Position numbers and translations under genes: made by a program
Part shown: in pieces, positions 7,508-41,149 of the stretch
Layout: each line of letters starts with the position of its first letter
Position numbering within the stretch: position 1 is the stretch's first letter
NCBI GenBank assembly: GCA_016776505.1
Contig: JADHTG010000014.1
Span: forward strand, 1-58,931
Reading direction: 5' to 3'
Origin: Bacteroidota bacterium
GTDB lineage: Bacteria; Bacteroidota; Bacteroidia; CAILMK01; JAAYUY01
DNA: 58,931 nt
Notes under the pieces: model-generated
Database searches by the model: none
What the model was told of the DNA's origin: nothing
What the model saw: only the letters and a program-made list of their open reading frames with translations

Positions 7508-8104
7508 TCAGGAAGAAGCCTCGGGAAAAGCCATCGCTTCAGTTAACACAAATGCTGCCTGGAGGTAGGATGTCGGGCAAAGGGGAAAGCATTCCATACA
7601 ACCCTTGCACTCCTTTGACGCAATTTCAGGGATGAAACAAATCTCTTTATTAATACCCCTGTCGATAAATCCAACTGCATTTAATTGCTTTACTTCTGCA
7701 CAGTACCTGACACATAAACCACAGTGTATGCAAAATGAAGATTCTTTATCAAATTGATCTTTATTAGCACCGTATTCCACTGCTAAATCCTGTAATTGCT
7801 GAGAATTCGGGGCATGTGCCAGCAGAAGTTCCAAAAGAGTTTTCCGAATTCTATCAATCTTCTCTGACCTGGTTCTGACCACTAAACCATTTTCAACTGC
7901 ATAAACGCAAGAAACAACCAGTTTTGTCCATCTGCCTGATTCCACTTCGACGAGGCAAAGTCTGCATCCTCCAAAAGGAATTAATTTTTCATGGTGACAC
8001 AGTTTGGGTATGGATATACCTGCACTTTGGGCTGCTTCCAGAACTGTCATCCCTTCCTTCGCTTGGACATTTTGTTCGTCTATGTTTAGAGTGATTTCTT
8101 TCAT
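7508..8104 (-). CDS. bamI: Class II benzoyl-CoA reductase BamI-like subunit (NuoG N-terminal type)
   Basis: 198-residue iron-sulfur protein like the N-terminus of NuoG or HoxU. Seen: an N-terminal [2Fe-2S] ferredoxin domain (CHHE...GGCRLC...C, ~36-68), the His/Cys-type linker region, and a C-terminal pair of [4Fe-4S] motifs CIHCGLCVRYC and CKGCMECFPLCP. With the NuoE- and NuoF-like neighbours it forms a soluble NADH-oxidising module. It is the last gene of the operon, as in Geobacter bamB-I. A reading from a TTG at 8125 is possible but falls inside the spacer repeat; the ATG at 8104 has AGGGAAGA just upstream and was chosen. Function by family and synteny; electron partner inferred. Confidence 0.85.
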   Translation of the reverse strand: MKEITLNIDEQNVQAKEGMTVLEAAQSAGISIPKLCHHEKLIPFGGCRLCLVEVESGRWTKLVVSCVYAVENGLVVRTRSEKIDRIRKTLLELLLAHAPNSQQLQDLAVEYGANKDQFDKESSFCIHCGLCVRYCAEVKQLNAVGFIDRGINKEICFIPEIASKECKGCMECFPLCPTSYLQAAFVLTEAMAFPEASS

Positions 8105-8116
8105 TCTTCCCTTTTT

Positions 8117-8201
8117 AAATTCCAAGTTCCCTGCCTTGCCTGAAGGCAGTCAAATTAAAAGTCTCAAGCCCCAAGATGTGAATGAAACCCTCTTGGAATT
8201 T
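8117..8201. repeat. Imperfect inverted repeat in the bamH-bamI gap
   Basis: AAATTCCAAG at 8117-8126 is perfectly inverted as CTTGGAATTT at 8192-8201, with an inner CTGCCTTGCCTGAAGGCAG hairpin. It resembles the TTGGAATTTG spacer repeats common in Bacteroidota. Confidence 0.7.
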
Positions 8202-8238
8202 GGTTCCTGGAATTTGAGATTTTGGACTTAACATTGCC

Positions 8239-10152: not shown

Positions 10153-10184
10153 AATTACTTTTGGTAAATGTCTTCATGATTGTA

Positions 10185-10320
10185 TAAAGCCCCAAATTTC
10201 AAATCCCAAAACTCAAAACCCGAGTTGTCTACAAGCTTGAATTTGCCTGCATGCAGGGTAAGGGGCTTGGAGCTTGGTGCCGAAGGTATCCCTTCGGGGA
10301 ATTTGAGACTCGGAGCCTTC
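10185..10320. repeat. Repeat-rich bamG-bamH gap
   Basis: Holds AAGCCCC inverted as GGGGCTT, a palindrome CCTGCATGCAGG, a hairpin TCCCTTCGGGGA, and multiple AATTTGAG/CTCAAAAC-type units. Same style as the other bam spacers; decayed inverted repeat. Confidence 0.55.
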
Positions 10321-10346
10321 ATTTCTTTTGTTTTTTATTGAAATTT

Positions 10347-10799: not shown

Positions 10800-10802
10800 A
10801 AT

Positions 10803-10911: not shown

Positions 10912-11679
10912 TTAAGGAAGCACATAACATTTACTTTTAACATCATACTTTACCAATCCTTGTGTGGATGAATTATTCATGTGTTTTGCCACTTCTGATG
11001 AACTTAATCCCAATGAATCAGCTATTTCCATGGTGGAAAGAGATTTTTTCTGAAGCAGGGATGTTATCTGGCTGATGGTCAATTTACTGACAATGATCTC
11101 TTGAAATAAGCTCTCAAATTCCTCACTGCTAAAAAAGGTATAATATGCTTCTTCGGTTAATTCAGAAACATGTAACTTTTGAGTTAACACCAGTTTTACA
11201 AATGGAATGATTTTCTTAACGGCCCCAAAACGGAAAGATAATGTTTCCTTATCAATGCCTTCAGCAGTTCCTATAGGTCCGAGTTTCGTAAGTTCTTCAC
11301 TATATTCAGTCATAAAATTAGAAAAGCGGATTCCTTCTCCTGCTGACACCCATTCAATCCGCAAACGTTCTGGATATAGTCCGATGTGTTTCAATATTTT
11401 CCTAAAAACCTGCACCATTCCATATGCGGTGAAATTTCCATTGGTTACATAGTGGCAATCACAAAGATGACAGCCTCCGACAAAAACCCCATCCTGTCCG
11501 TTTACAAATGCTTTCAAAATATGTAACATATCAACCCGGGCAGAACACATGACGCGGATCAAACGGATATGAGGAGGATACTGGAATCTTGAAACACCAG
11601 CAAGATCGGCACCTCCGTAACAGCACCAGTTGCAGATAATGCCTATCATTTTGGGTTGAAAATTATGGTCGATACTCAT
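10912..11679 (-). CDS. bamF: Class II benzoyl-CoA reductase BamF-like subunit (MvhD/FrhD type)
   Basis: 255-residue protein with an N-terminal MvhD domain: CNWCCYGGADLAG (16-28) and later VMCSARVD and GGCHLCDCHY, the [2Fe-2S] ligands through which MvhD passes electrons to HdrA. In many relatives one site in the CNWC motif is selenocysteine; here it reads as plain Cys (TGC TGT), so no Sec machinery is needed. The C-terminal ~65 residues look like a winged helix (SLSTMEIADSLGLSSSEVAKHM), an unusual tail whose role is unclear. It lies directly downstream of the HdrA-like gene, as in bam operons, and probably bridges the NADH module and BamE. Confidence 0.85.
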   Translation of the reverse strand: MSIDHNFQPKMIGIICNWCCYGGADLAGVSRFQYPPHIRLIRVMCSARVDMLHILKAFVNGQDGVFVGGCHLCDCHYVTNGNFTAYGMVQVFRKILKHIGLYPERLRIEWVSAGEGIRFSNFMTEYSEELTKLGPIGTAEGIDKETLSFRFGAVKKIIPFVKLVLTQKLHVSELTEEAYYTFFSSEEFESLFQEIIVSKLTISQITSLLQKKSLSTMEIADSLGLSSSEVAKHMNNSSTQGLVKYDVKSKCYVLP

Positions 11680-11730
11680 TTTTTTTAACTGATCACTTAT
11701 AAACTATTTAAATTAATTCTTATTTTTTAT

Positions 11731-11823: not shown

Positions 11824-11878
11824 AAATTGGATTTTATAAATACCAAATCCTTTCGTAATAATTCATAATTGTAAAATT

Positions 11879-14947: not shown

Positions 14948-14954
14948 TTCTTTT

Positions 14955-15062: not shown

Positions 15063-15069
15063 TTCTAAA

Positions 15070-16224
15070 TCATGAGATTGCTTCCTGAATAATTTCAGTA
15101 ATGTCCTTTATTTCAATGCTTTCATCATCCTTGCTGTTCAACAGGCTGTCTTCAAAATTAGCAATGCAATAAGGACATGCAGTTGCCATCACATCAGCTC
15201 CTGTTTCCACGGCCTGTTGCAACCTGATGTCAGAAAATCTTTCTCCTTTAGGAGTATCCATCCAGATACGGCCTCCTCCACCTCCACAGCAAAAACTTTC
15301 TTCCCTGGTCTCAACCATTTCCCTTAATTCTAAAGCAGCAATTTTCTGCAATACTTGTCGGGGTTCATCGTAAATACTGTTGTGCCTACCTAAATAACAT
15401 GGATCGTGATAGGTCACTTTTTTCTTATACTCTTTGGACAATTCAAGCCGGCCTTCCCGGATCAGTTCGAAAACATACTGCGCGATATGAACGATTTCAA
15501 AATTCACCATGAATTCAGGATACTCATTTTTAAACGTATGATAGCAATGCGGGGAAGAAACAAGAATTCTTTTCACTCCATGATCAATAAATGTTTTGAT
15601 ATTCTCTTTCGCTAATTGCAGGTATAAAGTCTCGTCACCGGCTTTGCGTATACTTTCTCCGCAACAGTTTTCTTTTGAGCCCAGAATACCATAATTTACG
15701 CTTGCTTTATTCAGTATACTGGCAGTAGCAACAGCCACCTTTTTTAACCTGGGGTCATAACTCAGGTAACAGCCCGGATAATAAAGAATTTCCATATCAC
15801 TGGCAAAGGTCTTGACAGAAAGTCCTTTTGCCCAGTCTGCCCTCTTGCTTCGATCTTCCATAAATGGATTCCCTTCTGCATTCAGAGCCGATCTGATGGA
15901 ACGCACAGGATCAGCCGAAGCTGCATAAATGCCATAATCTGTTGCTAACCTGCGCAATGCAATCCCCGATTCAACCTGCCCGACATTGCGCGGACAGGCT
16001 TGTGAGCATTTCCCACAGGTCGTACAAAGCCAGATATCTTCTCCTTCTATCTCAGACATTCCCAAATTACCCCCACGCACCAATTTGCGCATACTGAAAT
16101 TCCTTATGCCGCTCCATGGACAAACTACATCACACTTCCCACACTGGTAGCATAGTTTGAAAGAGTCACCACCCTGTTCTTTTATAATTTCGCTGATCTC
16201 TTTATAGTCGGCTAATTTCTCCAT
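15070..16224 (-). CDS. bamD: Class II benzoyl-CoA reductase BamD-like subunit (HdrD/GlpC type)
   Basis: 384-residue iron-sulfur protein. N-terminal pair of [4Fe-4S] motifs CYQCGKCDVVCPW (~25-37) and CTTCGKCSQACP (~66-77) as in HdrC, then two CCG domains as in HdrB: CCGESIRK (~205) and CCGGGGGRIWM (~315) followed by ACPYC. This fused HdrC-HdrB layout is that of HdrD and BamD; it should relay electrons between BamE and BamB-BamC. The longest frame starts at a TTG (16239) within the spacer repeat; the ATG at 16224 gives the natural start. Cytosolic, no membrane segments. Confidence 0.86.
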   Translation of the reverse strand: MEKLADYKEISEIIKEQGGDSFKLCYQCGKCDVVCPWSGIRNFSMRKLVRGGNLGMSEIEGEDIWLCTTCGKCSQACPRNVGQVESGIALRRLATDYGIYAASADPVRSIRSALNAEGNPFMEDRSKRADWAKGLSVKTFASDMEILYYPGCYLSYDPRLKKVAVATASILNKASVNYGILGSKENCCGESIRKAGDETLYLQLAKENIKTFIDHGVKRILVSSPHCYHTFKNEYPEFMVNFEIVHIAQYVFELIREGRLELSKEYKKKVTYHDPCYLGRHNSIYDEPRQVLQKIAALELREMVETREESFCCGGGGGRIWMDTPKGERFSDIRLQQAVETGADVMATACPYCIANFEDSLLNSKDDESIEIKDITEIIQEAIS

Positions 16225-16239
16225 TATTTTAAGTATCAA

Positions 16240-16385: not shown

Positions 16386-16390
16386 CCATT

Positions 16391-16936
16391 TTAACCCTTC
16401 TTAGATTCAGATAAACGTTCAATGACATCCTTTATATTGTTCAATCCATATTTATTGGCCAGTGCTTCCAATCCAATTTCCAGGTCTTCCTGTTTCACCT
16501 CCTCTTCAATTTCTTCTTCCCTTTCTTCGTATATCAATGCTTCATTCAAGCACCACTTGACACACAAAGGTATTTCCTGGGCTGGATCACTTTCACACAT
16601 ATCACATTTTAGCGGAAGTCCCGAATCAGGTTCTTTGAAAAGGTCCCTCGAAGGACAGGAAGCCCTGCAAAATGCACATTCGTCATATTCTTTTCCATCA
16701 ATAATATATTTGTCCCTGCCGGCACATTCTGCCACCGCATATTCACCTGCATATACAGGTACATATATATCTGCAATTGGATCACGTATGACCCGGATCC
16801 GGGACCTCGCAGGATTGTTGCTGCTATATTTTGGAGAAGAATGAAATGCAGAGCAAATCACCTCACAAGCCATGCAGCCCACGCACTTGTCAACGTCAAT
16901 ATTTATGGTTTTTATTTTTCTTTTCTTACCCTTCAT
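16391..16936 (-). CDS. bamC: Class II benzoyl-CoA reductase BamC-like electron-transfer subunit
   Basis: 181-residue polyferredoxin of the DMSO-reductase-B/HycB style. Cysteine groups: CVGCMACEVIC (~18-28), CAFCRASC (~86-93) and CDMCESD...CVKWC (~109-127), enough for three [4Fe-4S] clusters. In Geobacter BamC forms a tight heterotetramer with the active-site subunit BamB. The start codon overlaps the end of bamB by 11 bases, the only overlapping pair in this operon, which suits a 1:1 complex made by coupled translation. C-terminus is acidic (EEREEEIEEEVKQED). Confidence 0.86.
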   Translation of the reverse strand: MKGKKRKIKTINIDVDKCVGCMACEVICSAFHSSPKYSSNNPARSRIRVIRDPIADIYVPVYAGEYAVAECAGRDKYIIDGKEYDECAFCRASCPSRDLFKEPDSGLPLKCDMCESDPAQEIPLCVKWCLNEALIYEEREEEIEEEVKQEDLEIGLEALANKYGLNNIKDVIERLSESKKG

Positions 16937-18959
16937 TCTTTACTTCCTCCACTTTATTTTTTCCATTGTTTTCTGAAGTTTCATCAGGAAGAGTATCATT
17001 AGAATCAGAATATATACCTCTATTCTGGAAATCGTCGCTTACATAATCCAGTCCCAGATCTTGCAGTGATTCTTTCGTAGGAATACTTTCTCTATTCCAG
17101 CCTTTAAACTTATAATAGGTATCCAGTAGTTCCTTTTCAAGCTCAGGAAATCTCTTTTTCCAATGATTTGCAGGTGGTTTATCATCTTTTCTCCTCATGC
17201 CCCTGCTTATATTAATAGCTCGAACCAAGGTTCTGTATCGTTTAGCTGCCTTGCTTAATTTGGCTTCATCCATTTCAATACCAGCTCCCCAGGAAATCAG
17301 TTTTGGAAAATTGTGTATATGATAAGGAGGCTTCAAGGGAAATGATGACAATCCCGCACACATCCCAAGGGCATCATCAATGTAATGCATTTTCTCCTGC
17401 CAGTCAACGATGTCACAGCACATTTGAACAGTAGGATAATAGGGAAATGAGTTCTCACCGCGAAGCTCCCAATCCAGGAAATACTGTTTGAATTTCTCAT
17501 CAGGAACCTGGTGCCAATCCTTCACAAATTCTTCCCTTTCTTCCCTGGTTGGAAAAGGCATTTGGGGAAATTGTCCTTCAATCTGGGTAATATTGATCTT
17601 CTCACCGGTACAATACATCAGGAAATAAATGGGATTCAGCATGGATAATTTAAGAGGCATCTGCTCATGTTTTTTAATATTATTATGTGCATAATCCTCA
17701 GCCCCTTTTCCAATCTCTTTTGCTGCCCAATAAGTACCATTGGCCAGGGCATCTCCTATTCCTTCTCTCCTGACAATTCTGTCAAGCAACCAGAAAAATT
17801 TCTCATCGTTGGATTCCGGCATGCCCTTCATGTCTTCATCACTCAATATGTCATTTTCATAGAGTTCCAGAGCAAAAGCCATTACTTGTGGAGTTGAAAA
17901 TGCATCCACACCATATTCAGTTGCCCGCTGGGCAATTTTTAAGCCAAAATCCAGGTTGGACATGGCAGCCATTGTATAGGTCAGTTTAGAGAAGCATTTC
18001 ATCATATAGGTTGGAAGTCCCTCAATGGAAATCGTAGCTCCGCATTTCATAGGGCAATTATAGCAGCTTATTAATCGCTTCCTTGCATTTTCCAGGGTCT
18101 CTGTCCATTCTTTTTCAACCTCCTCAGTCCAAAAGCCTTTTCTACGGTGGCGGGAATTACCCCACATGAAGCTTTCAGTGTGCCATTTTTCATCATGGGT
18201 TTTCATTTCCTGTGGTGAACCAAGACCTGCTAATATGGGCATAACACCTGGGATTGGCTTGGCATCGCGGACTTTTATATATTCCAGCACTTCATTGCAC
18301 ATGCCAAGGAATTCTTCAGCTTGTGCAATGTTTATGTCACCTGTACCACGAACCGCTATTGCTTTTACGCCCTTGTCACCCATGACAGCTCCTATTCCTC
18401 CTCTGCTGGCACTGGACCTGCCTTGCTCTATGGATGCAAAATACACCTTATTCTCACCCGCCAGTCCGATCGAAAGAACCTGTGCTTTGGGTTCATTCAA
18501 TTCCTGCTGAATAAGCTTTTCCGTTTCAATGGCTCCTTTTCCCTGCAAATGGGAAGCATCCCGCAACTCCACTGTATCATTATTGATCCACAAATAAACC
18601 AGATCAGGAGACTTACCGCTTAATATTATTTTGTCATAACCAGCGTACTTTAATTCAGGAGCCCAAAATCCACCCATCATTGAAAAAGCCAATAATTTAG
18701 TCTGGGGAGAAATGGTTGTAACAATGGTGCGGTTACACCCGGGAGCTGGAGTCCCGCACAAAAGGCCGGCAGCAAAAATGAGCAGATTATCAGGAGAAAA
18801 TGCTTCCACCTCCGGAGGGACCCTGTCCCACATTATTTTGGCATTTGTACCCAATCCTCCAAGATAAAGTTCAGTCTCCATAGGGTCACTTGCTACCCTT
18901 TCAATATTTCCCCGGCTTAAGTCAATTTCTAAATTAAAACCTGTCTCTGCATATCTCAT
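16926..18959 (-). CDS. bamB: Class II benzoyl-CoA reductase active-site subunit BamB-like (tungsten, AOR family)
   Basis: 677-residue member of the aldehyde:ferredoxin oxidoreductase family, slightly longer than Geobacter BamB (~650). The AOR fold is shown by NLLIFAAGLLCGTPAPGCNR, GGFWAPELKYAGYDKIILSG and SRGGIGAVMGDKGVKAI. The [4Fe-4S] ligands are Cys299, Cys302, Cys306 and Cys534 (LGMC). The residues I recall as functional in the BamB crystal structure, Glu251, His260 and the tungsten ligand Cys322, fall on Glu251 (QEMK), His260 (EKWH) and Cys322 (MMKCFS) here with the same numbering. Ordinary aldehyde oxidoreductases lack that cysteine ligand, so I prefer ring reductase over aldehyde oxidation. 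Reaction: two-electron reduction of an aryl-CoA to a cyclic dienoyl-CoA without ATP; the exact substrate here may be 2-aminobenzoyl-CoA or benzoyl-CoA. First gene of the minus-strand operon. Confidence 0.9.
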   Translation of the reverse strand: MRYAETGFNLEIDLSRGNIERVASDPMETELYLGGLGTNAKIMWDRVPPEVEAFSPDNLLIFAAGLLCGTPAPGCNRTIVTTISPQTKLLAFSMMGGFWAPELKYAGYDKIILSGKSPDLVYLWINNDTVELRDASHLQGKGAIETEKLIQQELNEPKAQVLSIGLAGENKVYFASIEQGRSSASRGGIGAVMGDKGVKAIAVRGTGDINIAQAEEFLGMCNEVLEYIKVRDAKPIPGVMPILAGLGSPQEMKTHDEKWHTESFMWGNSRHRRKGFWTEEVEKEWTETLENARKRLISCYNCPMKCGATISIEGLPTYMMKCFSKLTYTMAAMSNLDFGLKIAQRATEYGVDAFSTPQVMAFALELYENDILSDEDMKGMPESNDEKFFWLLDRIVRREGIGDALANGTYWAAKEIGKGAEDYAHNNIKKHEQMPLKLSMLNPIYFLMYCTGEKINITQIEGQFPQMPFPTREEREEFVKDWHQVPDEKFKQYFLDWELRGENSFPYYPTVQMCCDIVDWQEKMHYIDDALGMCAGLSSFPLKPPYHIHNFPKLISWGAGIEMDEAKLSKAAKRYRTLVRAINISRGMRRKDDKPPANHWKKRFPELEKELLDTYYKFKGWNRESIPTKESLQDLGLDYVSDDFQNRGIYSDSNDTLPDETSENNGKNKVEEVKNEG

Positions 18960-19797: not shown

Positions 19798-21951
19798 ATG
19801 AAAGAAAGTGAGATGAAATACAAGTTGGGAATAGATGTGGGAGGTACATTTACCGACTTCTTTCTTGTGGGCAACGATGGTTCATCATTGGTACATAAAA
19901 CACTATCCACTCCTGAAGATTCTTCCATAGGTTTCATTACAGGGATTCATGAAATGGCAGAGAAACTCCAATTAACTCTCCCAGGATTCATCGCTAGAAT
20001 TGAAACCATTGTACATGGTACTACAGTAGCTACCAATGCCTTATTGACGATGAAAGGAGCGAAAACTGCCCTGATCACAACTGCTGGTTTTCGTGACGCT
20101 TTGGAAATGCGCAGGGGCGTGAGGGAAGAACGATACAACAATCATTACAGGAACGTTAAACCATTGGTGCCAAGGCATTTAAGGCTCTGTTTGACAGAAA
20201 GAGTGGATGCATCAGCTAAGATCATAGAAGAGCTGAACTTTGAAGAGCTGGATACTATCATAAGCAAAATCAAATCTGAACAGGTGGAAGCCATTGCCAT
20301 CTGCCTGATGAATTCCTTTTTGAACAATGAAAATGAAAAACAGCTTACACAATATCTGCGAGAGGCTTTGCCCGAACTTTATATTTGTGCATCTTTTGAA
20401 GTCCTTCCATCTATTCGTTTTTATGAAAGACTCAGTACAACCTGTATCAATGCTTATATTGGGGTTGTCATCGACCGCTACCTGGAGTCCCTGCTTAAGA
20501 AATTGAAAAAGATAAATTTCCAGGGCAAATTAATGATCATGCAGTCAAATGGAGGGGTTGTCACACCCGAAGTAGCCCGAAAGATCTCGGCAGTAACTGT
20601 GCTATCGGGACCAGCAGCAGCACCCATTGCTGGCTCTTATTATGCCCGTTTGCTTGGTTTTGAAAACTGCATTACAATGGATATGGGAGGAACCAGTTTT
20701 GATACTTCCATGGTAGTTAATGGCCAGTGCATTACCAGCACGGATGGGGAAATTGACCGCCACCGTATTGCCCTTCCTACCCTCGATATTATTACGATTG
20801 GTGCCGGAGGCGGAAGTATCGGCTGGGTGGATCCGGGAGCTTTGCTAAAAATGGGACCACAAAGTGCCGGCTCACTGCCAGGTCCAATATCCTACAACCG
20901 GGGTGGACTTGAGCCGACTTGTACAGATGCTGATTTAGTCCTTGGCTACCTGGATCCTGATTATTTCGCCGGGGGTAAATACCCGCTCCATGTAGAAAAA
21001 ACCAGGGAAATAATTGCATCCCGCCTGGGTGATTCAATTGGATTGAACGAACAACAAACCGCTGCTGGCATGTATCGTGTCATTAATATGAATATGGCAC
21101 AGGGTGTTCGCCAGGTTTCTGTTGAAAGGGGTTACGATCCCAGGGAATTCCTCCTGATTTGTGCTGGAGGAGCAGGGGCTATTCATGCAGGTGAGATCTG
21201 CCGGGAACTGGAGATCCCCATGTTCCTGGTTCCGGCTGTGGCTTCTATTTTTTGTGCGGCAGGCATGTTACTGGGCGATCTCAAACACGATTATGTTCGC
21301 TCCTACATAAGCAATTATTCAGATGTGGATCGCGATCGTTTCCTTGCTTTGTACCATGAAATGAGGGAAGAAGCCCGAAGCACCCTCCTTGAAGAAGGAA
21401 TAGAAGCTAAAAATATTGAATATTATCCCTCCCTTGACCTTCGGTATTTAGGGCAGTTTCATGAAGTTCCCCTTGAAGTTTCCATGGAAGACATATTGGA
21501 CTTTAAATTAATGGACATGAAGGAGGCTTTCCATAAAGAACATAACCGAAAGTATGGATATGAATTGAAATCAGAGGGCACTGAACTGGAAATGATCAAT
21601 GCCAGGTTAAGGGCTGTAGGAATCACGGAAAAACCGCATTCCTTATCAGCGAAGGAAAACATTCCTAAAAGCGATGTAAAACAGGCCTTCAAAGGAAAAA
21701 GAATGGCTTATGTGCCGGAAGCAGATGAAATGCAGGAAATGGCTGTTTACGATGGCGATAAACTGGGCGAAAGCATCACTATAAAAGGACCTGCTATCAT
21801 TGAACAGGTAAATACCACGCTGTTTTTAAGTTCCAGTTATCATTGTGAAACCATTATTGGAGGAAGTTTCCTGGTCTATAATAAAATCCTGCTACCTGAT
21901 GGTTACGCAAAGAATTCGTCCACAACAGAAATGAGCACATTGCATGGCTGA
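19798..21951 (+). CDS. Hydantoinase/oxoprolinase-type ATP-dependent lactamase, subunit A (IaaC/IaaE-like)
   Basis: 717-residue HyuA family protein with the ASKHA ATPase fold: phosphate-1 loop DVGGTFTDFFLVG (~14), VHGTTVATNALL (~67), NAYIGVVIDRYLE, phosphate-2 loop MDMGGTSFDTSMV (~300), GGGSIGWVD and AGGAGAIHA (~460). HyuA/HyuB pairs cleave lactams (hydantoin, 5-oxoproline) with ATP or carboxylate ketones. Beside a molybdenum hydroxylase, CoA-transferase and B12 mutase, the best fit is the enzyme opening the lactam ring of 2-oxoindole-3-acetate to 2-aminophenylsuccinate in anaerobic indoleacetate degradation. An acetophenone-carboxylase-type role is the alternative, but no biotin or extra carboxylase subunit is present. 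First gene of the plus operon; overlaps the next gene by 8 bases. The ATG at 19813 is an alternative start. Confidence 0.85.
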   Translation: MKESEMKYKLGIDVGGTFTDFFLVGNDGSSLVHKTLSTPEDSSIGFITGIHEMAEKLQLTLPGFIARIETIVHGTTVATNALLTMKGAKTALITTAGFRDALEMRRGVREERYNNHYRNVKPLVPRHLRLCLTERVDASAKIIEELNFEELDTIISKIKSEQVEAIAICLMNSFLNNENEKQLTQYLREALPELYICASFEVLPSIRFYERLSTTCINAYIGVVIDRYLESLLKKLKKINFQGKLMIMQSNGGVVTPEVARKISAVTVLSGPAAAPIAGSYYARLLGFENCITMDMGGTSFDTSMVVNGQCITSTDGEIDRHRIALPTLDIITIGAGGGSIGWVDPGALLKMGPQSAGSLPGPISYNRGGLEPTCTDADLVLGYLDPDYFAGGKYPLHVEKTREIIASRLGDSIGLNEQQTAAGMYRVINMNMAQGVRQVSVERGYDPREFLLICAGGAGAIHAGEICRELEIPMFLVPAVASIFCAAGMLLGDLKHDYVRSYISNYSDVDRDRFLALYHEMREEARSTLLEEGIEAKNIEYYPSLDLRYLGQFHEVPLEVSMEDILDFKLMDMKEAFHKEHNRKYGYELKSEGTELEMINARLRAVGITEKPHSLSAKENIPKSDVKQAFKGKRMAYVPEADEMQEMAVYDGDKLGESITIKGPAIIEQVNTTLFLSSSYHCETIIGGSFLVYNKILLPDGYAKNSSTTEMSTLHG

Positions 21952-29539: not shown

Positions 29540-31570
29540 ATGTTACCCGGAGAAAAGAAGTATCCAAACATTTTCAGCCCAATTCAAATCGGGAATCTGT
29601 GGGCCAAAAATCGAATTAAATATGCATCCACTGAAACGAATTATAATTATAGTGATGGTTTTGTTTCTGAAAAGGAGCTTGCTTACATCGAAGCGCATGC
29701 AAGAGGTGGCTCAGGTATTGTGACCACCCAGGGAGCTTACACTGATCCCAATGGTGAAGGCCAGGGCTATGTGGGCATGATGGGAATTTGGGATGATAAA
29801 TTTATTCCAGGACTCAAAAGAATGGCAGATATCATACATCAAAGTGATGCCCTTGCCTGCCTTCAGCTAATGCATTGTGGCCGTGTTGGAGGAATCAATC
29901 TTCCTTATACAGTAGGACCATCTGCTATCCCTCAGCGTTTACGCAGATTTCGGCCACAAAGAAAAATGAGTATACCGGAAGTGGAAACCTGTATTCAGGA
30001 ACATATTGATGGAGCAAGAAGAGCTGTTGAAGCAGGTTACGAAATCATCGAGATTTCAGGAATTGTCGGTTACCTGGTTTCAAACTTCGTTTCAAGCTAC
30101 ACCAACTGGAGAAGTGATGAATATGGAGGAGATATTGATGGCCGCTGTACATTTATGAGGAAAATAGTGGAAGGAATTCGCAAAGAAGTGGGAAATGATG
30201 TTGCCCTCGGGATACGCTTATGCGGTTGGGAAATGCTGGATGACAGGGGTGGAAATACGGAAGACGAAAGTTTAAGATCCCTGCTGATATCTGAAACCGC
30301 AGGCTGCGATTACCTGAGTGTAACCGTTGGTTGGCAGGAATCACTAGGTTCTGTCATTTCACGGGATATCCCAATGGGTAAGTGGCTTTACATTGCTGAA
30401 AGAGCTAAACAGGCTCTCACGATACCTGTTAGCATGGCATACCGGCTTTTTACACCTGAAATTCCGGAAGAAGCTATTTCAAATGGGAAATTGGATATAT
30501 GGGAAATGTGTCGGCCCCAGATTGCTGATCCCGCCCTGCCTAATAAAATTATGTGGGACAAACAGGAGGATATAATCCCTTGTATTGCTTGCCAGGTTTG
30601 CCTGGCCAGGTTGTTCCGCGATGCACCCGTTACCTGTACTGTTCGTCCCTCATGCAGTCATGAAGGAGAGCGTGAATGGGGTTATTATGGATTTCCAAAA
30701 ACAGAAATAAAGCGAAAAGTTATTGTTGCAGGAGCCGGCCTGGCAGGTCTGCAGGCAGCGAAAATTGCAGCCGAAAAAGGACATGATGTAACCGTCTATG
30801 AAAAAACTGCCCATGTGGGTGGACAATGGTATTATGCTTCAAGAAATCCATGGGGCGAGAAATCAGGAAAATACTGGGATGACGAGGAGTTCATGAGATG
30901 GATAGATCATATGAAAGCACAATGTGATAAACATGGAGCGAAATTTATCCTTAACACCCCTGTTACAAAAGAGCTTCTCGCAAAGGAAAAGCCTGATTCA
31001 TTGGTTATTGCAACCGGTGCAGTTCCTGAAGTTCCAGAAATTCCGGGAGCTGACAAACCACATGTGGTCAGTATTTTTGATGTATTCTCAGGAAAAGTAA
31101 AACTGGGTAAAAATGTGGTCATTATTGGGGGTTCAGGTGCAGCCATATCATTATCCTTGTTTATAATAGATCTGCAGGAAAAAAATGGCGTAAAAGACGC
31201 AAATCTTGCATTAATTGATTCTGCTCCCCGCTTTGGATGGGATGTAAATCCTTCTTATATCTGGAGGTACAGGTTGCGCCTTAAACAGGCAAAAGTCAAG
31301 GAATTAACCTACGGACAAATAAAAGAAATTAAGGACGACAGCATAGTTGCTGACTGGACAATTTTCAATAAGAAAACCAAAGAAAAAAGCAAATTCGAGA
31401 ACCAGACTGTTCCTGCTGACACCATTATTCTGGCTAAACTTATTCCTAATGCCGAACTTAAATATGGCGCATTAAAAAAAGATGATACGGCCATGATTGG
31501 TGATTGTGTGTGGGTAAGACGAGGAATTGACGCTATCCAGGATGGATATCGTGTGGGAATGAGATATTAA
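29540..31570 (+). CDS. Old-yellow-enzyme family 2-enoate/dienoyl-CoA reductase-like flavoprotein
   Basis: 676 residues: an FMN TIM barrel (~1-345) like 2,4-dienoyl-CoA reductase, 2-enoate reductase and 2-naphthoyl-CoA reductase, an iron-sulfur motif, and an FAD/NAD(P) domain (~390-676). Seen: NRIKYASTETNY, QLMHCGRVG in place of the usual HxGR, TNWRSDEYGG, cysteines CIACQVCLARLFRDAPVTC (C-x2-C-x2-C-x11-C, one residue shorter than the usual C-x2-C-x3-C), and dinucleotide motifs VAGAGLAGLQAA and IIGGSGAAISL. Strong ribosome site AGGAGGA. A ferredoxin gene follows. It may reduce a double bond of the ring-reduction product or of an aryl-CoA directly; substrate unknown. Confidence 0.82.
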   Translation: MLPGEKKYPNIFSPIQIGNLWAKNRIKYASTETNYNYSDGFVSEKELAYIEAHARGGSGIVTTQGAYTDPNGEGQGYVGMMGIWDDKFIPGLKRMADIIHQSDALACLQLMHCGRVGGINLPYTVGPSAIPQRLRRFRPQRKMSIPEVETCIQEHIDGARRAVEAGYEIIEISGIVGYLVSNFVSSYTNWRSDEYGGDIDGRCTFMRKIVEGIRKEVGNDVALGIRLCGWEMLDDRGGNTEDESLRSLLISETAGCDYLSVTVGWQESLGSVISRDIPMGKWLYIAERAKQALTIPVSMAYRLFTPEIPEEAISNGKLDIWEMCRPQIADPALPNKIMWDKQEDIIPCIACQVCLARLFRDAPVTCTVRPSCSHEGEREWGYYGFPKTEIKRKVIVAGAGLAGLQAAKIAAEKGHDVTVYEKTAHVGGQWYYASRNPWGEKSGKYWDDEEFMRWIDHMKAQCDKHGAKFILNTPVTKELLAKEKPDSLVIATGAVPEVPEIPGADKPHVVSIFDVFSGKVKLGKNVVIIGGSGAAISLSLFIIDLQEKNGVKDANLALIDSAPRFGWDVNPSYIWRYRLRLKQAKVKELTYGQIKEIKDDSIVADWTIFNKKTKEKSKFENQTVPADTIILAKLIPNAELKYGALKKDDTAMIGDCVWVRRGIDAIQDGYRVGMRY

Positions 31571-31600: not shown

Positions 31601-31918
31601 ATGATATTATCTGAAATTTCAAGTGCCCGACCAAATATTCCAGGTACCAAAATGAGTGTGTATCCCCATTCCGCTTCAAGCGGCAAAGGATTGTACCCAT
31701 GGGTTGACGCATTTAGATGCAATGGATGCAAAGCTTGTGCAAGGGCATGTCCGCCCGACATCATTGGCTTCCATAAAGGAAAAGCAGCTATCGTTCTGGA
31801 CCTTTGCCAACAATGTGGTGAATGCTTTGAAGCCTGTCCCGTGGAAGGAGCTATTTTATTCAAGCTGCCTCCGGGCGCACATGAAGGGGACAATATTCCT
31901 TTTATTTCAAAATATTAA
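31601..31918 (+). CDS. 2[4Fe-4S] ferredoxin-like protein
   Basis: 105 residues with two classical motifs, CNGCKACARACPPD (~41-54) and CQQCGECFEACPVEG (~71-85). The 40-residue N-terminal extension (SSARPNIPGTKMSVYPHS) is not typical of a free ferredoxin and resembles small electron-transfer subunits. It sits 30 bases after the old-yellow-enzyme-like gene and is probably its partner, or a carrier between the ferredoxin-linked indolepyruvate oxidoreductase and the reductases. Confidence 0.85.
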   Translation: MILSEISSARPNIPGTKMSVYPHSASSGKGLYPWVDAFRCNGCKACARACPPDIIGFHKGKAAIVLDLCQQCGECFEACPVEGAILFKLPPGAHEGDNIPFISKY

Positions 31919-31965: not shown

Positions 31966-32391
31966 ATGAGTGAAAAATTAAATACAAATTACGTGGACCA
32001 CATTTGCATTGCTGTGAATGATGTGAAGAAAGCAGAAAAGGATTATGTAGATGCATTTGGATGGGATGTAGCCTATCGTTATGTGGATGAACCTGAAAAG
32101 ATCCGGGTTACTGGCTTCATGGTGGGCCAAACTGCCATTGAGATCATGGAAGATACAGATGGAACAGGCGAAGTGGCAAAATTCATTAAACGGTCAGGAG
32201 AAGGAGTCATGCTGATCAGTTATAATGTAGACAATTGTGAAAAATCACTGGATATTTTAAAGAAAAACAAGGTCAGGTTAATTGATCAAAAACCAAGGTA
32301 TTTTGCCGAATATAAGCGAAATTTTGCATTTATTCATCCAGCTGCGACCCATGGCATATTGACGGAAATAATTGATGGGAAATATGAATGA
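31966..32391 (+). CDS. VOC-fold protein, methylmalonyl-CoA epimerase-like
   Basis: 141 residues, close in length and pattern to methylmalonyl-CoA epimerase. Three of its four metal ligands appear: His12 (VDHICIAV), Gln55 (GQTAIEI), Glu134 (HGILTEIID). The third ligand, a His in a G-x-HHI segment, is missing: the sequence is GEGVMLISYNV with Met82-Leu83. A good ribosome site (AGGAG) precedes the ATG. In a pathway with a B12 mutase an epimerase would invert the malonyl-CoA stereocentre; with a ligand lost, it may bind metal differently or do another reaction. Overlaps the CoA-transferase by 4 bases. Confidence 0.75.
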   Translation: MSEKLNTNYVDHICIAVNDVKKAEKDYVDAFGWDVAYRYVDEPEKIRVTGFMVGQTAIEIMEDTDGTGEVAKFIKRSGEGVMLISYNVDNCEKSLDILKKNKVRLIDQKPRYFAEYKRNFAFIHPAATHGILTEIIDGKYE

Positions 32392-33608
32392 AAAAAACAA
32401 TATTATCTCTTGAACAGGCCCTGGCACTCCCTTACACCACTCAACGCTTCGTGCAGTTGGGATGGAGGGTAGTGCGCATCGAATCGCCACCAGCTCGCGC
32501 AAATCACAGGAGCGGTGATCCTAACCGATATATTGGAGAAGACACCGGAGTGGATGACCTGCATGCTTATTATATTGCTCCTAATATGGGAAAAGAAGCA
32601 ATAAGCCTGAATCTCAAAACCAGGGAAGGACAGGAATTATTAAAAACCCTCATCAAGAAATTAGAAGTTGATATATTCCTCTGCAATACTTTACCCAAGA
32701 GATACAAGGAGCTTGGAATTGACTTCGATACATTAAAGGAAGCCAATCCCAATCTGATCTGGTGCGGGATTTCTGCATTTGGTCCGGATTATCCTAATAG
32801 TGCCGGATACGATCCTGCCATGCAGGCCTATATGGGATTTATGCATTTGACAGGTGAAGCAGATGGAGATCCAATGCTTTGTGGCCTGCCAATAATCGAC
32901 CTGAAGGCAGGTGATGAAGCATTTTCCCAGGTCATACTGGCCATAGCCGAACAATTAAGTCCTGATAAAAGCGATAGCAAAAAGAAAAGGGGTAAGGAAA
33001 TTTTTATTTCGATGGCCCATTGTGCCGCCTCCTGGCTGATCACAGCGCTGCCCCAAATCCAGTTTGTTCAGGATGAAGCAGATTTATTTACCCGCAGTGG
33101 CAATGAGCACAGAAGCTTTATTCCCTGCAACTGCTATCCCACCAAAGACGGTCATGTTTATCTTGCCATAGGCAACGATTTGCAATGGGAAAAGCTGACA
33201 AAAATCAAAGGATTTGAACATTTGCATAAAGACGAAAGAATGAGTAACCAGGGACGGGACCAGGATAAGGGAAATATTTATTCAGACATCCGGGCAGGTT
33301 TGCAAAACTACACGACCTCTGAATTTGTCACTATTTGTACAAATCTTAATTTAGCAGCCGCCCCTGTAAATTCAACAGTGGATATTGCTCAACTTGATTT
33401 TGTCAGTAAGAATATGATGAAAACCACTTTGCCTTCTGGTAAAACAGCTCCCCTTTTTCCCGCTCCGATAATAACTGATTATCTTACTGATGTCGATTTT
33501 ACACTCAACTGCCCTCCCCGTCTTGGAGAACATAATAACCTCATTTACAAGGAAATTGGTTATTCTGATCTTCAAATCAGTGAATTAAAAATGAATAAAA
33601 TAATTTAA
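32388..33608 (+). CDS. Class III (CaiB/BaiF) CoA-transferase, IaaL-like
   Basis: 406-residue family III CoA-transferase. Family segments: GWRVVRIESPP (N-terminal), YYIAPNMGKEAISLNLKTREG (~61-81), GISAFGPDYPNSAGYDPAMQA and the catalytic aspartate Asp171 in LCGLPIIDLKAGDEAF, the residue that forms the anhydride and acyl-aspartate intermediates. In the Aromatoleum indoleacetate pathway a phenylsuccinyl-CoA transferase (IaaL) of this family activates 2-aminophenylsuccinate. Here the donor could be indoleacetyl-CoA from the neighbouring oxidoreductase (inference). Interlocked with the VOC gene (ATGA). Confidence 0.85.
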   Translation: MKKTILSLEQALALPYTTQRFVQLGWRVVRIESPPARANHRSGDPNRYIGEDTGVDDLHAYYIAPNMGKEAISLNLKTREGQELLKTLIKKLEVDIFLCNTLPKRYKELGIDFDTLKEANPNLIWCGISAFGPDYPNSAGYDPAMQAYMGFMHLTGEADGDPMLCGLPIIDLKAGDEAFSQVILAIAEQLSPDKSDSKKKRGKEIFISMAHCAASWLITALPQIQFVQDEADLFTRSGNEHRSFIPCNCYPTKDGHVYLAIGNDLQWEKLTKIKGFEHLHKDERMSNQGRDQDKGNIYSDIRAGLQNYTTSEFVTICTNLNLAAAPVNSTVDIAQLDFVSKNMMKTTLPSGKTAPLFPAPIITDYLTDVDFTLNCPPRLGEHNNLIYKEIGYSDLQISELKMNKII

Positions 33609-36164: not shown

Positions 36165-36659
36165 ATGGATGAAAATCTTATACCCATTTCTTTTACTATC
36201 AACGGAGAGAAAGTGAGTAAACGGATCTTACCTTCTCTTATCCTGATAGACCTGATACGGGATCAGCTTCAATTAAAGGGAACCAAGCCAGGCTGCCTGG
36301 AAGGTGAATGCGGAGCCTGTACAGTATTGGTAAATGGATCAGCCGTCAACTCATGTCTTTACATGGCCGTGAATATCGATGGGAAAGAGATTCTAACCAT
36401 TGAAGGACTCAGTAGCATTGAGCAACCTTTGCATCCAATCCAGGAAAAAATGCTGGAACATGGTGCAGTACAGTGTGGTTTCTGCACTTGTGGAATTGTC
36501 CTGACTACAAAAGCATTTGGGGAAGAATGTAAAAAAGAAGGAAAAATTCCCACACGAAAGGAAGTGAAGAAAAGCCTGGAAGGACATTTGTGCAGATGCA
36601 CAGGCTATGTTAAGATCATCGATGCAGCTGAAGATTATTTAACTCATCCATCTGTTTAA
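36165..36659 (+). CDS. Molybdenum hydroxylase [2Fe-2S] subunit (xanthine dehydrogenase family)
   Basis: 164-residue subunit with two [2Fe-2S] clusters: plant-type CLEGECGACTVLVNGSAVNSC (shown in parts: CLEGECGAC at ~43-51, C at ~63) and the helical domain CGFC...CRCTGY (~106-109, ~146-150). Standard size. First of three subunits of a molybdenum hydroxylase. In anaerobic indoleacetate degradation an enzyme of this family inserts water-derived oxygen at C2 of the indole ring. Six bases after the IOR gene. Confidence 0.92.
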   Translation: MDENLIPISFTINGEKVSKRILPSLILIDLIRDQLQLKGTKPGCLEGECGACTVLVNGSAVNSCLYMAVNIDGKEILTIEGLSSIEQPLHPIQEKMLEHGAVQCGFCTCGIVLTTKAFGEECKKEGKIPTRKEVKKSLEGHLCRCTGYVKIIDAAEDYLTHPSV

Positions 36660-39854: not shown

Positions 39855-39962
39855 AATTGTTTCATTCAATTCACGAACATTAGAATGGATGAATAATGAA
39901 ATAGCTTATGCTCAAAATAGGTAAAACTATGCCTTTTCAGATTGAATTAAATGCTAAAGAAA

Positions 39963-40016
39963 TAGGGTATAAAGGCATAAGGAAGAACAACTTATACCCT
40001 TATACCTTATATCCTT
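39963..40016. repeat. Inverted repeat in the gap before the aminotransferase
   Basis: GGGTATAA at 39965-39972 is inverted as TTATACCC at 39992-39999, within AGGGTATAAAGGCATAAGG and CTTATACCCTTATACC. It may attenuate or end the upstream operon; there is no T-run. The rest of 39855-40108 shows nothing. Confidence 0.5.
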
Positions 40017-40108
40017 TTACAATAGGAATTTACACCAATAGTTCATAATTGAAACGAAAAACATGAAATGAATGAATTAAGCTCATTCAAGATCTAATTA
40101 AAAAAAAC

Positions 40109-41149
40109 ATGAAGAAACAGGAATCTCCCTTATATGTTAATCTGGATTACGAAGGCCATGTCAAAAGGCTTGCACAAAATGAAAACCCTTACGGTCCTTC
40201 ACCCCTGGCTAAAGAAGCCATAGCACAAAATATAAACAAGATTTCTTTATATCCTGATGTGGTATTAACAGAGCTGAAGGAAAAGCTGGCTGCCAAACAC
40301 CATGTTTCTCCACAAGAAATAATTGTTTCCAACGGATCAGGGGCCATCATCAACTCACTGATCAAATTCATGATGGGAAATACGGAGAATATTGTTGTTC
40401 CTGAAATTTCTTTTGTCGCCTATAAGCTTTGCGCAGCAATTTATGAAAGGGAATGCAGGATAGTACCGATGAAAAATTATTCTATCGACCTGCATCAGAT
40501 AGCTCAAAGCTGTGATGAAAAAACCCGATTGGTTTTTTTGGCCAACCCCAACAATCCTACGGGCACCATATTTACACATGCAGAGATTGTGGAATTTCTT
40601 AACCAGATCCCTCCCGATACGATTGTAGTTCTGGACGAAGCTTACAGGGAGTATGTAAATCATCCCGATTTCCCGGATTCGATCCAACTTTTTAAAAATC
40701 ATGTCAATGTAATAATATTACACTCTTTCTCAAAGATTTATGGACTGGCTGGCTTAAGAATTGGATATGGCATTGGCCAAAAATCCATTATTGAAAGCCT
40801 GGAAAAGAAGCGACTCCCTTTTGCCGTAGGGAGCATAGCCAATATCGCCGCACTCGCCTCACTTGACGATAAGGAACATATCCGTGAAAGCGCCAGCTTA
40901 AATGCTGGAAGCAGAGATTTCCTTTTCAACGAACTTAGTCGTCTGGGCTATCAGGTCATTCCATCACAGGGAAATTTTATTTTTATTTCCTTCCCAAGCA
41001 CTGCTGAGCGCGATCAAATGCATGATACCTTAATGGAAAATAAAATGGTGGTAAGAAAAATGGAAGCCTTTGGTGATAATCGTGCTTTACGTATTAGCCT
41101 GGGAAGCAAAGAAGCCAACGGACAACTGGTGGATTGTTTGAAGAAATAA
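40109..41149 (+). CDS. PLP aminotransferase, HisC/aromatic aminotransferase type
   Basis: 346-residue class I/II aminotransferase of the histidinol-phosphate aminotransferase group. Seen: AQNENPYGPSPLAKEAI (~22-38), NGSGAIINSL, the ANPNNPTGT segment (~145-153), DEAY (~176-179) and the pyridoxal-phosphate lysine Lys209 in HSFSKIYGLAGLRIGY. No other his genes are nearby. HisC-type enzymes often accept aromatic amino acids, and this gene lies on the same strand 254 bases after the operon that includes an indolepyruvate oxidoreductase, so a tryptophan (aromatic amino acid) aminotransferase role is likely. Histidine or phenylalanine biosynthesis cannot be excluded. Confidence 0.8.
   Translation: MKKQESPLYVNLDYEGHVKRLAQNENPYGPSPLAKEAIAQNINKISLYPDVVLTELKEKLAAKHHVSPQEIIVSNGSGAIINSLIKFMMGNTENIVVPEISFVAYKLCAAIYERECRIVPMKNYSIDLHQIAQSCDEKTRLVFLANPNNPTGTIFTHAEIVEFLNQIPPDTIVVLDEAYREYVNHPDFPDSIQLFKNHVNVIILHSFSKIYGLAGLRIGYGIGQKSIIESLEKKRLPFAVGSIANIAALASLDDKEHIRESASLNAGSRDFLFNELSRLGYQVIPSQGNFIFISFPSTAERDQMHDTLMENKMVVRKMEAFGDNRALRISLGSKEANGQLVDCLKK

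What the first reader, a model, noticed from the sequence alone, without database searches (positions are those of the whole stretch)
7508..41149. Apparent tryptophan/auxin degradation supercluster joined to a dearomatising tungsten reductase in Bacteroidota
The plus operon carries, in one run, the enzyme classes of the anaerobic indoleacetate pathway (Mo hydroxylase, HyuA/HyuB lactamase, class III CoA-transferase, B12 mutase in two subunits, acyl-CoA dehydrogenase, thiolase) plus an indolepyruvate:ferredoxin oxidoreductase and an aromatic-type aminotransferase. Divergent to it lies a complete bamB-I operon. The combination predicts tryptophan -> indolepyruvate -> indoleacetyl-CoA -> oxindole derivative -> 2-aminophenylsuccinyl-CoA -> 2-aminobenzylmalonyl-CoA -> 2-aminobenzoyl-CoA -> ring reduction. 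Gene content is seen; the pathway in Aromatoleum/Azoarcus is established; the join of the two and its presence in this phylum are inference.
Basis: partly seen in the sequence, partly recalled or inferred. Interest (0 to 1): 0.95.

Follow-up and report, generated by a model that had tools for sequence, protein, structure and literature searches.

The report
Anaerobic tryptophan ring-breaking supercluster in Bacteroidota
An uncultured Bacteroidota genome carries, back to back on divergent strands, all eight genes of a BamB-to-BamI type benzoyl-CoA reductase and an indoleacetate-type gene set, which together are predicted to break down tryptophan without oxygen, with a neighbouring flavoenzyme likely stripping off the ring's amino group before the ring is reduced.

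Summary
The minus operon (7508-18959) is a full bamBCDEFGHI set; BamB scores 1226 bits against Geobacter BamB and keeps Cys322 and four proton-path residues. The plus operon (19798-39854, 15 genes, largest gap 98 bases, then an aminotransferase) is an indoleacetate (iaa) type set: its acyl-CoA dehydrogenase has the published IaaF signature GGG in place of YEG (6 of 6 homologues in such clusters, window included; 0 of 7 others). Most of the cluster recurs in other Bacteroidota, and 3 of 6 other BamB-bearing Bacteroidota genomes carry its HyuA. I propose that it likely deaminates 2-aminobenzoyl-CoA to benzoyl-CoA for BamB. The window has no indoleacetate-CoA ligase; a 2-oxoacid:ferredoxin oxidoreductase takes that place, so tryptophan rather than auxin is the likely entry. 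The bamB-hyuA junction was seen only here, and a close HyuA is in just 2 of 395 evenly drawn Bacteroidota genomes. Nothing was assayed, and Aromatoleum iaa sequences could not be fetched for comparison.

The parts
16926..18959 (-). [quoted passage not shown]
   Evidence: 1226 bits to PDB 4z3w over residues 1-651; E251, H255, E257, H260, C322 present
16391..16936 (-). bamC, Fe-S subunit
   Evidence: weak 4Fe-4S matches; 86% to the own-genome C122 copy
15070..16239 (-). bamD, HdrD-like CCG protein
   Evidence: PF02754
11879..14947 (-). bamE, HdrA-like flavoprotein
   Evidence: HdrA2 model 925 bits, below its cut-off of 1100
10912..11679 (-). bamF, MvhD/FlpD-like
   Evidence: PF02662
10347..10799 (-). 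bamG, NuoE-like
   Evidence: PF01257
8239..10152 (-). bamH, NuoF-like
   Evidence: PF01512, PF10589
7508..8125 (-). bamI, NuoG-like Fe-S protein
   Evidence: PF13510
18960..19797 (.). 838-base divergent intergenic region between the two operons
   Evidence: 12 promoter-like matches against 6.8 expected (sd 2.4), not evidence of function
19798..21951 (+). hyuA, ATP-dependent lactamase subunit (predicted 2-oxoindoleacetyl-CoA lactamase)
   Evidence: PF01968; CapA model 652 bits, below its cut-off of 1000
21944..23695 (+). hyuB, lactamase partner subunit
   Evidence: PF02538
23692..24819 (+). iaaF-like decarboxylating acyl-CoA dehydrogenase
   Evidence: GGG at residues 358-360 in place of YEG
24816..26207 (+). 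HMGCS-like domain fused to zinc-ribbon/OB-fold, thiolase partner
   Evidence: no Cys between residues 49 and 251
26185..27387 (+). thiolase (Thiolase_C_1 type), predicted to release acetyl-CoA
   Evidence: benzoylsuccinyl-CoA thiolase subunit 174 bits
27391..27765 (+). B12-binding subunit of the CoA mutase (iaaGH-like)
   Evidence: PF02310
27828..29441 (+). large subunit of the CoA mutase (iaaGH-like)
   Evidence: PF01642; loop reads IAGGGGGGL
29540..31570 (+). OYE-type FMN/FeS/FAD reductase, predicted 2-aminobenzoyl-CoA reductase
   Evidence: best solved relative NCR 6qkg 442 bits against 252 for 2,4-dienoyl-CoA reductase
31601..31918 (+). 4Fe-4S dicluster ferredoxin, predicted electron donor of the OYE enzyme
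   Evidence: follows OYE also in PowLak16 and gw1592
31966..32391 (+). methylmalonyl-CoA-epimerase-like protein, predicted benzylmalonyl-CoA epimerase
   Evidence: TIGR03081 92.5 bits, below its cut-off of 114.95
32388..33608 (+). class III CoA-transferase, iaaL-like
   Evidence: PF02515
33618..36158 (+). fused alpha-beta 2-oxoacid:ferredoxin oxidoreductase of the indolepyruvate family
   Evidence: TIGR03336 383.6 bits, below its cut-off of 650.9; beta part 641-834
36165..36659 (+). Mo hydroxylase 2Fe-2S subunit
   Evidence: PF01799
36673..38988 (+). Mo hydroxylase large subunit, predicted indole C2 hydroxylase
   Evidence: PF02738, PF20256
38985..39854 (+). Mo hydroxylase FAD subunit
   Evidence: PF00941
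40109..41149 (+). HisC-family aminotransferase, predicted tryptophan aminotransferase
   Evidence: TIGR01141 304.8 bits; next to moM also in PowLak16, GWA2_32_17 and G403

Best explanation
The locus holds two divergent operons, a bamBCDEFGHI benzoyl-CoA reductase set and an indoleacetate-type (iaa-like) set, which are predicted to work as one route that would carry tryptophan through indoleacetyl-CoA to 2-aminobenzoyl-CoA, from which the OYE-type flavoenzyme would likely remove the amino group so that BamB could reduce the ring. Steps, all inferred from gene content: the aminotransferase makes indolepyruvate; the fused oxidoreductase makes indoleacetyl-CoA and reduced ferredoxin; the Mo hydroxylase makes 2-oxoindoleacetyl-CoA; HyuAB opens the lactam with ATP; the CoA-transferase moves CoA between the two carboxyls; the B12 mutase gives (2-aminobenzyl)malonyl-CoA; the epimerase-like protein sets its configuration; the IaaF-like enzyme removes CO2 and two hydrogens to give 2-aminocinnamoyl-CoA; beta-oxidation and the thiolase pair give 2-aminobenzoyl-CoA and acetyl-CoA; OYE plus its ferredoxin add hydride at C2 and expel ammonia (the least certain step, about 0.3); BamB-I reduces benzoyl-CoA with ferredoxin electrons by bifurcation; hydratase, dehydrogenase and ring hydrolase on contig C82 finish.
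For: BamB identity and active-site residues (residues from PMC12096430 passages). Full bamB-I order. IaaF GGG signature (PMC8360864 Discussion): 6 of 6 homologues in iaa-like clusters, window included, and 0 of 7 others. IaaF uses one benzylmalonyl-CoA enantiomer and an epimerase restarts the reaction, matching the epimerase-like gene. Synteny: PowLak16 C84 carries mcmL-oye-fd-glx-coat-ior-moS-moL-moM-amt in the window's order; GWA2_32_17 and G403 carry the core. In gw1592 bamB..I is followed on the same strand by oye (89%) and fd (89%), so the same flavoenzyme pair is attached to bam in one genome and to iaa genes in another. In G403 a TrpB-like gene lies 35 bases before hyuA. HyuA at 73-80% in 3 of 6 other BamB-bearing Bacteroidota against 1 of 394 other evenly drawn genomes with a match at E<=1e-150; Fisher p 7.5e-6. 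G403, found through HyuA and lacking BamB, has a class I benzoyl-CoA reductase C subunit over the cut-off; base rate 2 of 395. The own genome holds the ring hydrolase (584 bits, cut-off 464), the 6-hydroxycyclohex-1-ene-carbonyl-CoA dehydrogenase over its cut-off, and a dienoyl-CoA hydratase-like gene below it. Anaerobic A. evansii turns 2-aminobenzoyl-CoA into benzoyl-CoA by a reductase (PMC4539516 passage), and NCR defluorinates 6-fluoro-naphthoyl-CoA, in line with hydride transfer (PMC6502838 passage).
Against: No activity data. The bamB-hyuA junction was seen in no other locus: of 80 BamB loci none has the iaa-type set within the held flank, though only 46 of 80 hold 5 kb or more upstream of bamB. 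GWA2_32_17 (G412), G403 and D. sandiegensis have the cluster but no OYE at E<=1e-100, so OYE is not needed everywhere. Three other BamB-bearing Bacteroidota (G409-G411) have no HyuA match at E<=1e-60. The two class I reductase carriers among the 395 (G059, G294) have no HyuA match at E<=1e-100, and G160 has HyuA but only sub-cut-off reductase matches. Desulfosarcina cetonica has a split HyuA relative (49/39%) beside Mo-hydroxylase genes but no mutase there, and its best dehydrogenase match has YEG. OYE differs from NCR at His284 (Gln in 124 of 124 sequences). IOR, epimerase and HyuA models score below their curated cut-offs. The mutase family with the GGGGGG loop is widespread in Bacteroidota, so it is not diagnostic alone. 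No enoyl-CoA hydratase lies in the operon. G406 (NIOZ-UU40, same species by C122) gave no HyuA match, perhaps because a record near the window is withheld.
Confidence: 0.72

Rival explanations
1. Same tryptophan route, but BamB would reduce 2-aminobenzoyl-CoA directly and the OYE enzyme would act afterwards on the amino-diene, which loses ammonia as an enamine or imine.
For: OYE relatives include 2,4-dienoyl-CoA reductase; two of the three clusters without OYE (G403, GWA2_32_17; not D. sandiegensis) carry a RidA-type gene between hyuB and the dehydrogenase, fitting enamine hydrolysis.
Against: BamB is ordinary at the five active-site residues checked; the OYE residue E322, equivalent to NCR E341 and reported absent in dienoyl-CoA reductase, is invariant in 124 of 124.
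Confidence: 0.3
2. The two operons are functionally separate neighbours: the plus operon ends at 2-aminobenzoyl-CoA, and the bam operon serves benzoate-type substrates.
For: The join is unique among the loci seen; in PowLak16 and MAG16 bam is divergent to benzoyl-CoA genes instead, and in C15 it is near them.
Against: Co-occurrence by genome, OYE-Fd at the end of bam in gw1592, and a second bam operon in this genome already beside a 4-hydroxybenzoyl-CoA-reductase-like gene.
Confidence: 0.15
3. The plus operon breaks down another lactam-forming N-heterocycle or aryl acid, not indole compounds.
For: Hydantoinase and Mo-hydroxylase families are broad; several models score below their cut-offs.
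Against: GGG signature, mutase, epimerase-like gene and CoA-transferase together with an indolepyruvate-family oxidoreductase, and the TrpB-like neighbour in G403.
Confidence: 0.1
4. Assembly or binning artefact.
For: The genome is a 129-contig draft, 92.8% complete, 3.8% contamination.
Against: The same order of ten genes in PowLak16 at 68-94% identity; the window's mutase and HyuA are each reported on 7 contigs with the same longest length, 168,426; a Por_Secre_tail protein at 55075-56538 fits Bacteroidota. None of these tests the bamB-hyuA junction directly.
Confidence: 0.03

Closest known systems
Aromatoleum aromaticum iaa operon (anaerobic indoleacetate degradation; IaaF, IaaGH, IaaL)
   Same: Lactamase-type HyuAB, CoA-transferase, B12 mutase in two subunits and a dehydrogenase with GGG.
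   Different: No IaaB-type ligase found in the window; a 2-oxoacid:ferredoxin oxidoreductase and an aminotransferase instead; an epimerase-like gene; an OYE-ferredoxin pair; a class II benzoyl-CoA reductase operon alongside (A. aromaticum is recalled to use a class I enzyme). Sequence identity to Aromatoleum was not measured.
Geobacter metallireducens class II benzoyl-CoA reductase BamBCDEFGHI
   Same: All eight subunit types in order; BamB 1226 bits; key residues kept.
   Different: Phylum; a second paralogous operon in the same genome; divergent to an iaa-like operon.
2-Naphthoyl-CoA reductase (type III aryl-CoA reductase, PDB 6qkg)
   Same: Best solved relative over residues 8-675; Tyr197, Tyr82, Arg245, Glu341 and four Cys have counterparts.
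   Different: His284 is Gln; one residue fewer between the second and third Cys; sits in a tryptophan-type cluster, while published members are for polycyclic aromatics.
iaa-type operons of sulfate reducers (here the Dethiosulfatarculus sandiegensis region L136-L137)
   Same: Acyl-CoA dehydrogenase with GGG, mutase, HyuAB, Mo hydroxylase.
   Different: It has an ETF pair and a branched-chain-type transporter; no such gene was found in the window operon.

Membership tests
Class II benzoyl-CoA reductase | BamB-type catalytic subunit with the extra Cys ligand (Cys322) | tested here: met
   feature
Class II benzoyl-CoA reductase | Glu251, His255, Glu257, His260 | tested here: met
   feature
Class II benzoyl-CoA reductase | Seven further subunits BamC-I | tested here: met
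   subunit count; the subunit letters were assigned by domain and order, as recalled for Geobacter
Class II benzoyl-CoA reductase | Tungsten content and benzoyl-CoA reduction | not testable with these tools
   needs purified enzyme
iaa indoleacetate pathway | IaaF with GGG in place of YEG | tested here: met
iaa indoleacetate pathway | Two-subunit B12 mutase, class III CoA-transferase, HyuAB-type lactamase in one operon | tested here: met
iaa indoleacetate pathway | HyuA falls in the published 2-oxoindoleacetyl-CoA lactamase subcluster | not tested
   the subcluster is described in a PMC5214803 passage, but its sequences were not fetched
iaa indoleacetate pathway | Indoleacetate-CoA ligase IaaB as in A. 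aromaticum | tested here: not met
   no AMP-binding ligase among 38 window ORFs scanned; the rest of the genome was not searched for one; hence filed as an iaa-like variant, not as the auxin operon
Type III aryl-CoA reductase (NCR type) | OYE barrel, Fe-S linker and FAD domain with four Cys | tested here: met
Type III aryl-CoA reductase (NCR type) | Tyr197 with Tyr82, and Arg245 with Glu341 | tested here: met
   roles
Type III aryl-CoA reductase (NCR type) | His284 as second hydrogen-bond donor | tested here: not met
   Gln266 in 124 of 124; hence called NCR-like, not filed as a member
Type III aryl-CoA reductase (NCR type) | Trp459 blocking the NADPH site | tested here: inconclusive
   by my count Trp446 lies two residues from the position aligned with Trp459

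The most novel reading that the evidence does not exclude
The OYE-ferredoxin pair is the missing anaerobic 2-aminobenzoyl-CoA reductase: an ATP-independent flavin reductive deaminase that turns the tryptophan-derived aminoaryl-CoA into benzoyl-CoA for BamB. It would be a first monocyclic substrate for the NCR-like fold, and would give Bacteroidota a complete oxygen-free tryptophan mineralisation route in which the ferredoxin reduced by the indolepyruvate oxidoreductase feeds ring reduction.
Probability: 0.28. Interest if true: 0.85.

Novelty: new variant of a known kind. Interest (0 to 1): 0.74.

Why it matters
Each half resembles known biochemistry, but the join would give one gene set running from an amino acid to ring reduction without oxygen, in a phylum for which the titles and abstracts listed by my searches of an open-licence library (one search listed 20 of 144) showed no report of it. 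It names a testable candidate for how the aniline nitrogen of 2-aminobenzoyl-CoA is removed anaerobically, suggests that NCR-like flavoenzymes serve more than polycyclic hydrocarbons, and points to uncultured Bacteroidota of anoxic habitats as possible tryptophan mineralisers.

Tried and rejected
Rejected: the mutase alone as a marker (its GGGGGG-loop family is widespread); plasmid records as a source of iaa relatives (mutase, HyuA and dehydrogenase all below 60% identity in 427, 991 and 1976 records); an aerobic 2-aminobenzoyl-CoA monooxygenase as the end step (no match over the cut-off in 6 genomes); BamB specialisation for an amino substrate (10 positions depart from a 95% consensus, none of them among the five listed active-site residues); a single origin of Bacteroidota BamB (quick tree, 5 changes for 6 rows, many open forks). 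Promoter matches in the divergent gap were not used. The OYE and dehydrogenase tallies used the same 17 genomes, which were picked, not drawn at random. In the 80-locus table matches under 30% query coverage were left out.
Full report
What is there. The window is one whole contig (C70) of a 3.33 Mb, 129-contig draft genome, 92.8% complete. Another of its contigs, C122, matches 22,031 bases of 'Bacteroidetes bacterium isolate NIOZ-UU40' at 99.995%, so the species is very likely that one. NIOZ-UU genomes are described from the Black Sea (PMC8359478, passages); the passages seen do not mention UU40. Two operons diverge from an 838-base gap. The minus operon is bamBCDEFGHI. The plus operon runs 15 genes from hyuA to the Mo-hydroxylase FAD subunit with no gap over 98 bases, then a HisC-family aminotransferase 254 bases on.

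The bam half. BamB aligns without gaps over residues 1-651 to Geobacter metallireducens BamB at 1226 bits; the next solved relative scores 213. Cys322 and the four proton-path residues named in a review (PMC12096430, passages) are all present. The genome has a second bam operon on C122, 79-87% identical, beside a thiolase, an SDR, an oxoacid oxidoreductase and a 4-hydroxybenzoyl-CoA-reductase-like gene that scores 869 against a cut-off of 994.55. Contig C82 carries the ring hydrolase (584 bits, cut-off 464), the hydroxyacyl-CoA dehydrogenase (440, cut-off 339) and a dienoyl-CoA hydratase-like gene (218, below its cut-off of 292.5). So the central benzoyl-CoA route is present apart from proof of the hydratase.

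The iaa half. The published IaaF subclass has GGG where other acyl-CoA dehydrogenases have YEG (PMC8360864, Discussion read). The window protein reads LIGGGTSEI. Of the 13 homologues I examined (window included), the 6 in iaa-like clusters have GGG and the 7 others have YEG or GEG. The paper also reports that IaaF uses one enantiomer and that a methylmalonyl-CoA epimerase restarts it (passages); the operon has an epimerase-like gene (below its cut-off). The mutase loop that reads QTSGWS in human methylmalonyl-CoA mutase reads GGGGGG here; this likely makes room for an aromatic substituent, but the same loop is common in Bacteroidota. HyuA and mutase hit lists (best 120 each) share 19 exact longest-contig lengths among 59 and 67 contigs of at least 10 kb, which suggests wide physical linkage; contig identities were not shown. 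The window has no AMP-forming CoA ligase among 38 ORFs scanned, so the indolepyruvate-type oxidoreductase is the likely source of indoleacetyl-CoA; [quoted passage not shown]

Recurrence. PowLak16_MAG5 has mcmL-oye-fd-glx-coat-ior-moS-moL-moM-amt in the window's order at 68-94% identity, and hyuA-hyuB (80 and 90%) on another contig; both contigs end inside the cluster, so its dehydrogenase region was not seen, and no dehydrogenase match at E<=1e-70 was found in that genome. GWA2_32_17 has hyuAB-RidA-dehydrogenase-mutase-transferase-oxidoreductase and, on the other strand, the Mo hydroxylase and aminotransferase. G403, of the same order, has a TrpB-like gene (TIGR01415 633 bits, cut-off 519), hyuAB, RidA, dehydrogenase, mutase, transferase, oxidoreductase, Mo hydroxylase and aminotransferase in one run. 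gw1592 has mutase small subunit, dehydrogenase, ETF pair and hyuBA. G160 has hyuB, dehydrogenase and mutase on one contig and hyuA and the CoA-transferase on another. Dethiosulfatarculus sandiegensis has an ETF pair, dehydrogenase with GGG, mutase, hyuAB and a Mo hydroxylase; the paper says predicted iaa operons of sulfate reducers hold an ETF. Desulfosarcina cetonica has a split HyuA relative and Mo-hydroxylase genes but no mutase in the fetched stretch, and its best dehydrogenase match has YEG, so HyuA alone does not make an iaa cluster.

Are the halves linked? In 395 evenly drawn Bacteroidota genomes, HyuA at E<=1e-150 is in 2, own and G160 (33 have a weaker match at E<=1e-100), and BamB in 1, own; in the order, HyuA in 2 of 12 and BamB in 1 of 12. 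Of 7 Bacteroidota-titled genomes among the 80 best BamB loci (297 loci matched), one is the own species; of the other 6, 3 carry HyuA at 73-80%. Against 1 of 394 this gives Fisher p 7.5e-6; the two samples were drawn differently, so this is a guide only. G403 and G160 came through HyuA, not BamB: G403 has a class I benzoyl-CoA reductase C subunit over the cut-off (441, cut-off 421), G160 only weak matches. The base rate is 2 of 395, and those two genomes have no HyuA match at E<=1e-100, so the link is not one to one. No locus but the window has the iaa-type set beside bamB: 0 of 80, with 46 of 80 holding 5 kb or more upstream of bamB. In gw1592, however, bamB to bamI is followed by oye and fd at 89%, the pair that sits inside the iaa operon in the window and in PowLak16.

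The overlooked flavoenzyme. Its best solved relative is 2-naphthoyl-CoA reductase (442 bits; 2,4-dienoyl-CoA reductase 252). Counting along the alignment, NCR Tyr197, Tyr82, Arg245 and Glu341 have the same residues here and His284 is Gln; all hold in 124 of 124 sequences (window, the best 120 database relatives of 1509, and 3 cluster homologues). The NCR paper (passages) says that Glu341 counteracts the Arg charge at FMN and is absent in dienoyl-CoA reductase, that a ferredoxin-like donor is assumed, that NCR removes fluorine from 6-fluoro-naphthoyl-CoA, and that flavin hydride transfer to benzoyl-CoA appears to be no option, which speaks against OYE as the ring reductase but not against deamination. 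Two 2026 papers (passages) say type III reductases are known only from polycyclic aromatics, and one reports reduction of isolated benzene rings. A review (passage) says anaerobic Azoarcus evansii turns 2-aminobenzoyl-CoA into benzoyl-CoA by a reductase. Together these make reductive deamination the reading I commit to for OYE, at about 0.3. In 17 picked genomes the OYE enzyme was found in 4, all with HyuA. RidA-type genes sit in two of the three clusters without OYE (not in D. sandiegensis) and in none of the fetched loci with OYE (the PowLak16 dehydrogenase region was not visible), which hints at two ways of losing the nitrogen; with so few cases this is only a lead.

Limits. Aromatoleum iaa proteins were not compared: no reference sequence was reachable. 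Chemistry of the iaa steps beyond the cited passages, the lettering of the Bam subunits, and the role of HisC-type enzymes on tryptophan are recalled or inferred. Statements about what is in print rest on the listings in an open-licence library, several of them capped (for example 20 of 144); most subscription papers are not held.

Noticed in passing
G000:C122, L006 490-19974: A second complete bam operon 79-87% identical to the window's, beside a thiolase, an SDR, an oxoacid oxidoreductase and a 4-hydroxybenzoyl-CoA-reductase-like gene.
   Followed up: partly
L013 4127-6940: A second 4-hydroxybenzoyl-CoA-reductase-like large subunit (950 bits, cut-off 994.55), apparently fused at its N-terminus to a 2Fe-2S region, near the benzoyl-CoA ring-cleavage genes.
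   Followed up: no
L140 13111-14478: A TrpB-like gene lies directly before hyuA in G403 (ends 14478, hyuA starts 14514); it may feed indole into the route as tryptophan.
   Followed up: partly
L134 17581-17988 and L140 18350-18778: RidA-type genes between hyuB and the dehydrogenase in two clusters that lack the OYE enzyme (D. sandiegensis has neither).
   Followed up: partly
window 24816-26207: The HMGCS-like domain has no cysteine between residues 49 and 251, so it is probably not a working synthase; it may be a scaffold for the thiolase.
   Followed up: partly
P0241-P0360: The best 120 database relatives of the NCR-like OYE enzyme are 79-93% identical; named sources include Bacteroidota, Aminicenantes and Zixibacteria, and some are labelled 2,4-dienoyl-CoA reductase.
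   Followed up: partly
L159 14971-18266: About 3.3 kb of unexplained sequence splits bamB from bamC in gw1592.
   Followed up: no
L134 13553-13957 and L133 4639-8448: Nuclease-superfamily and restriction-modification-type genes inside iaa-like clusters of GWA2_32_17 and gw1592.
   Followed up: no
L138 14936-17007: The Desulfosarcina cetonica hyuA-like match is split over two frames.
   Followed up: no
window 3865-6767: Pyridine nucleotide transhydrogenase genes beside the 3' end of the bam operon.
   Followed up: no
window 1667-2081 (-) and 3393-3465 (+): RNase P RNA (class A) and tRNA-Glu.
   Followed up: no
window 46119-54938: Glycogen metabolism genes: a glycogen synthase/phosphorylase fusion of 1415 aa, GH57, a glycosyltransferase and a debranching enzyme.
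   Followed up: no
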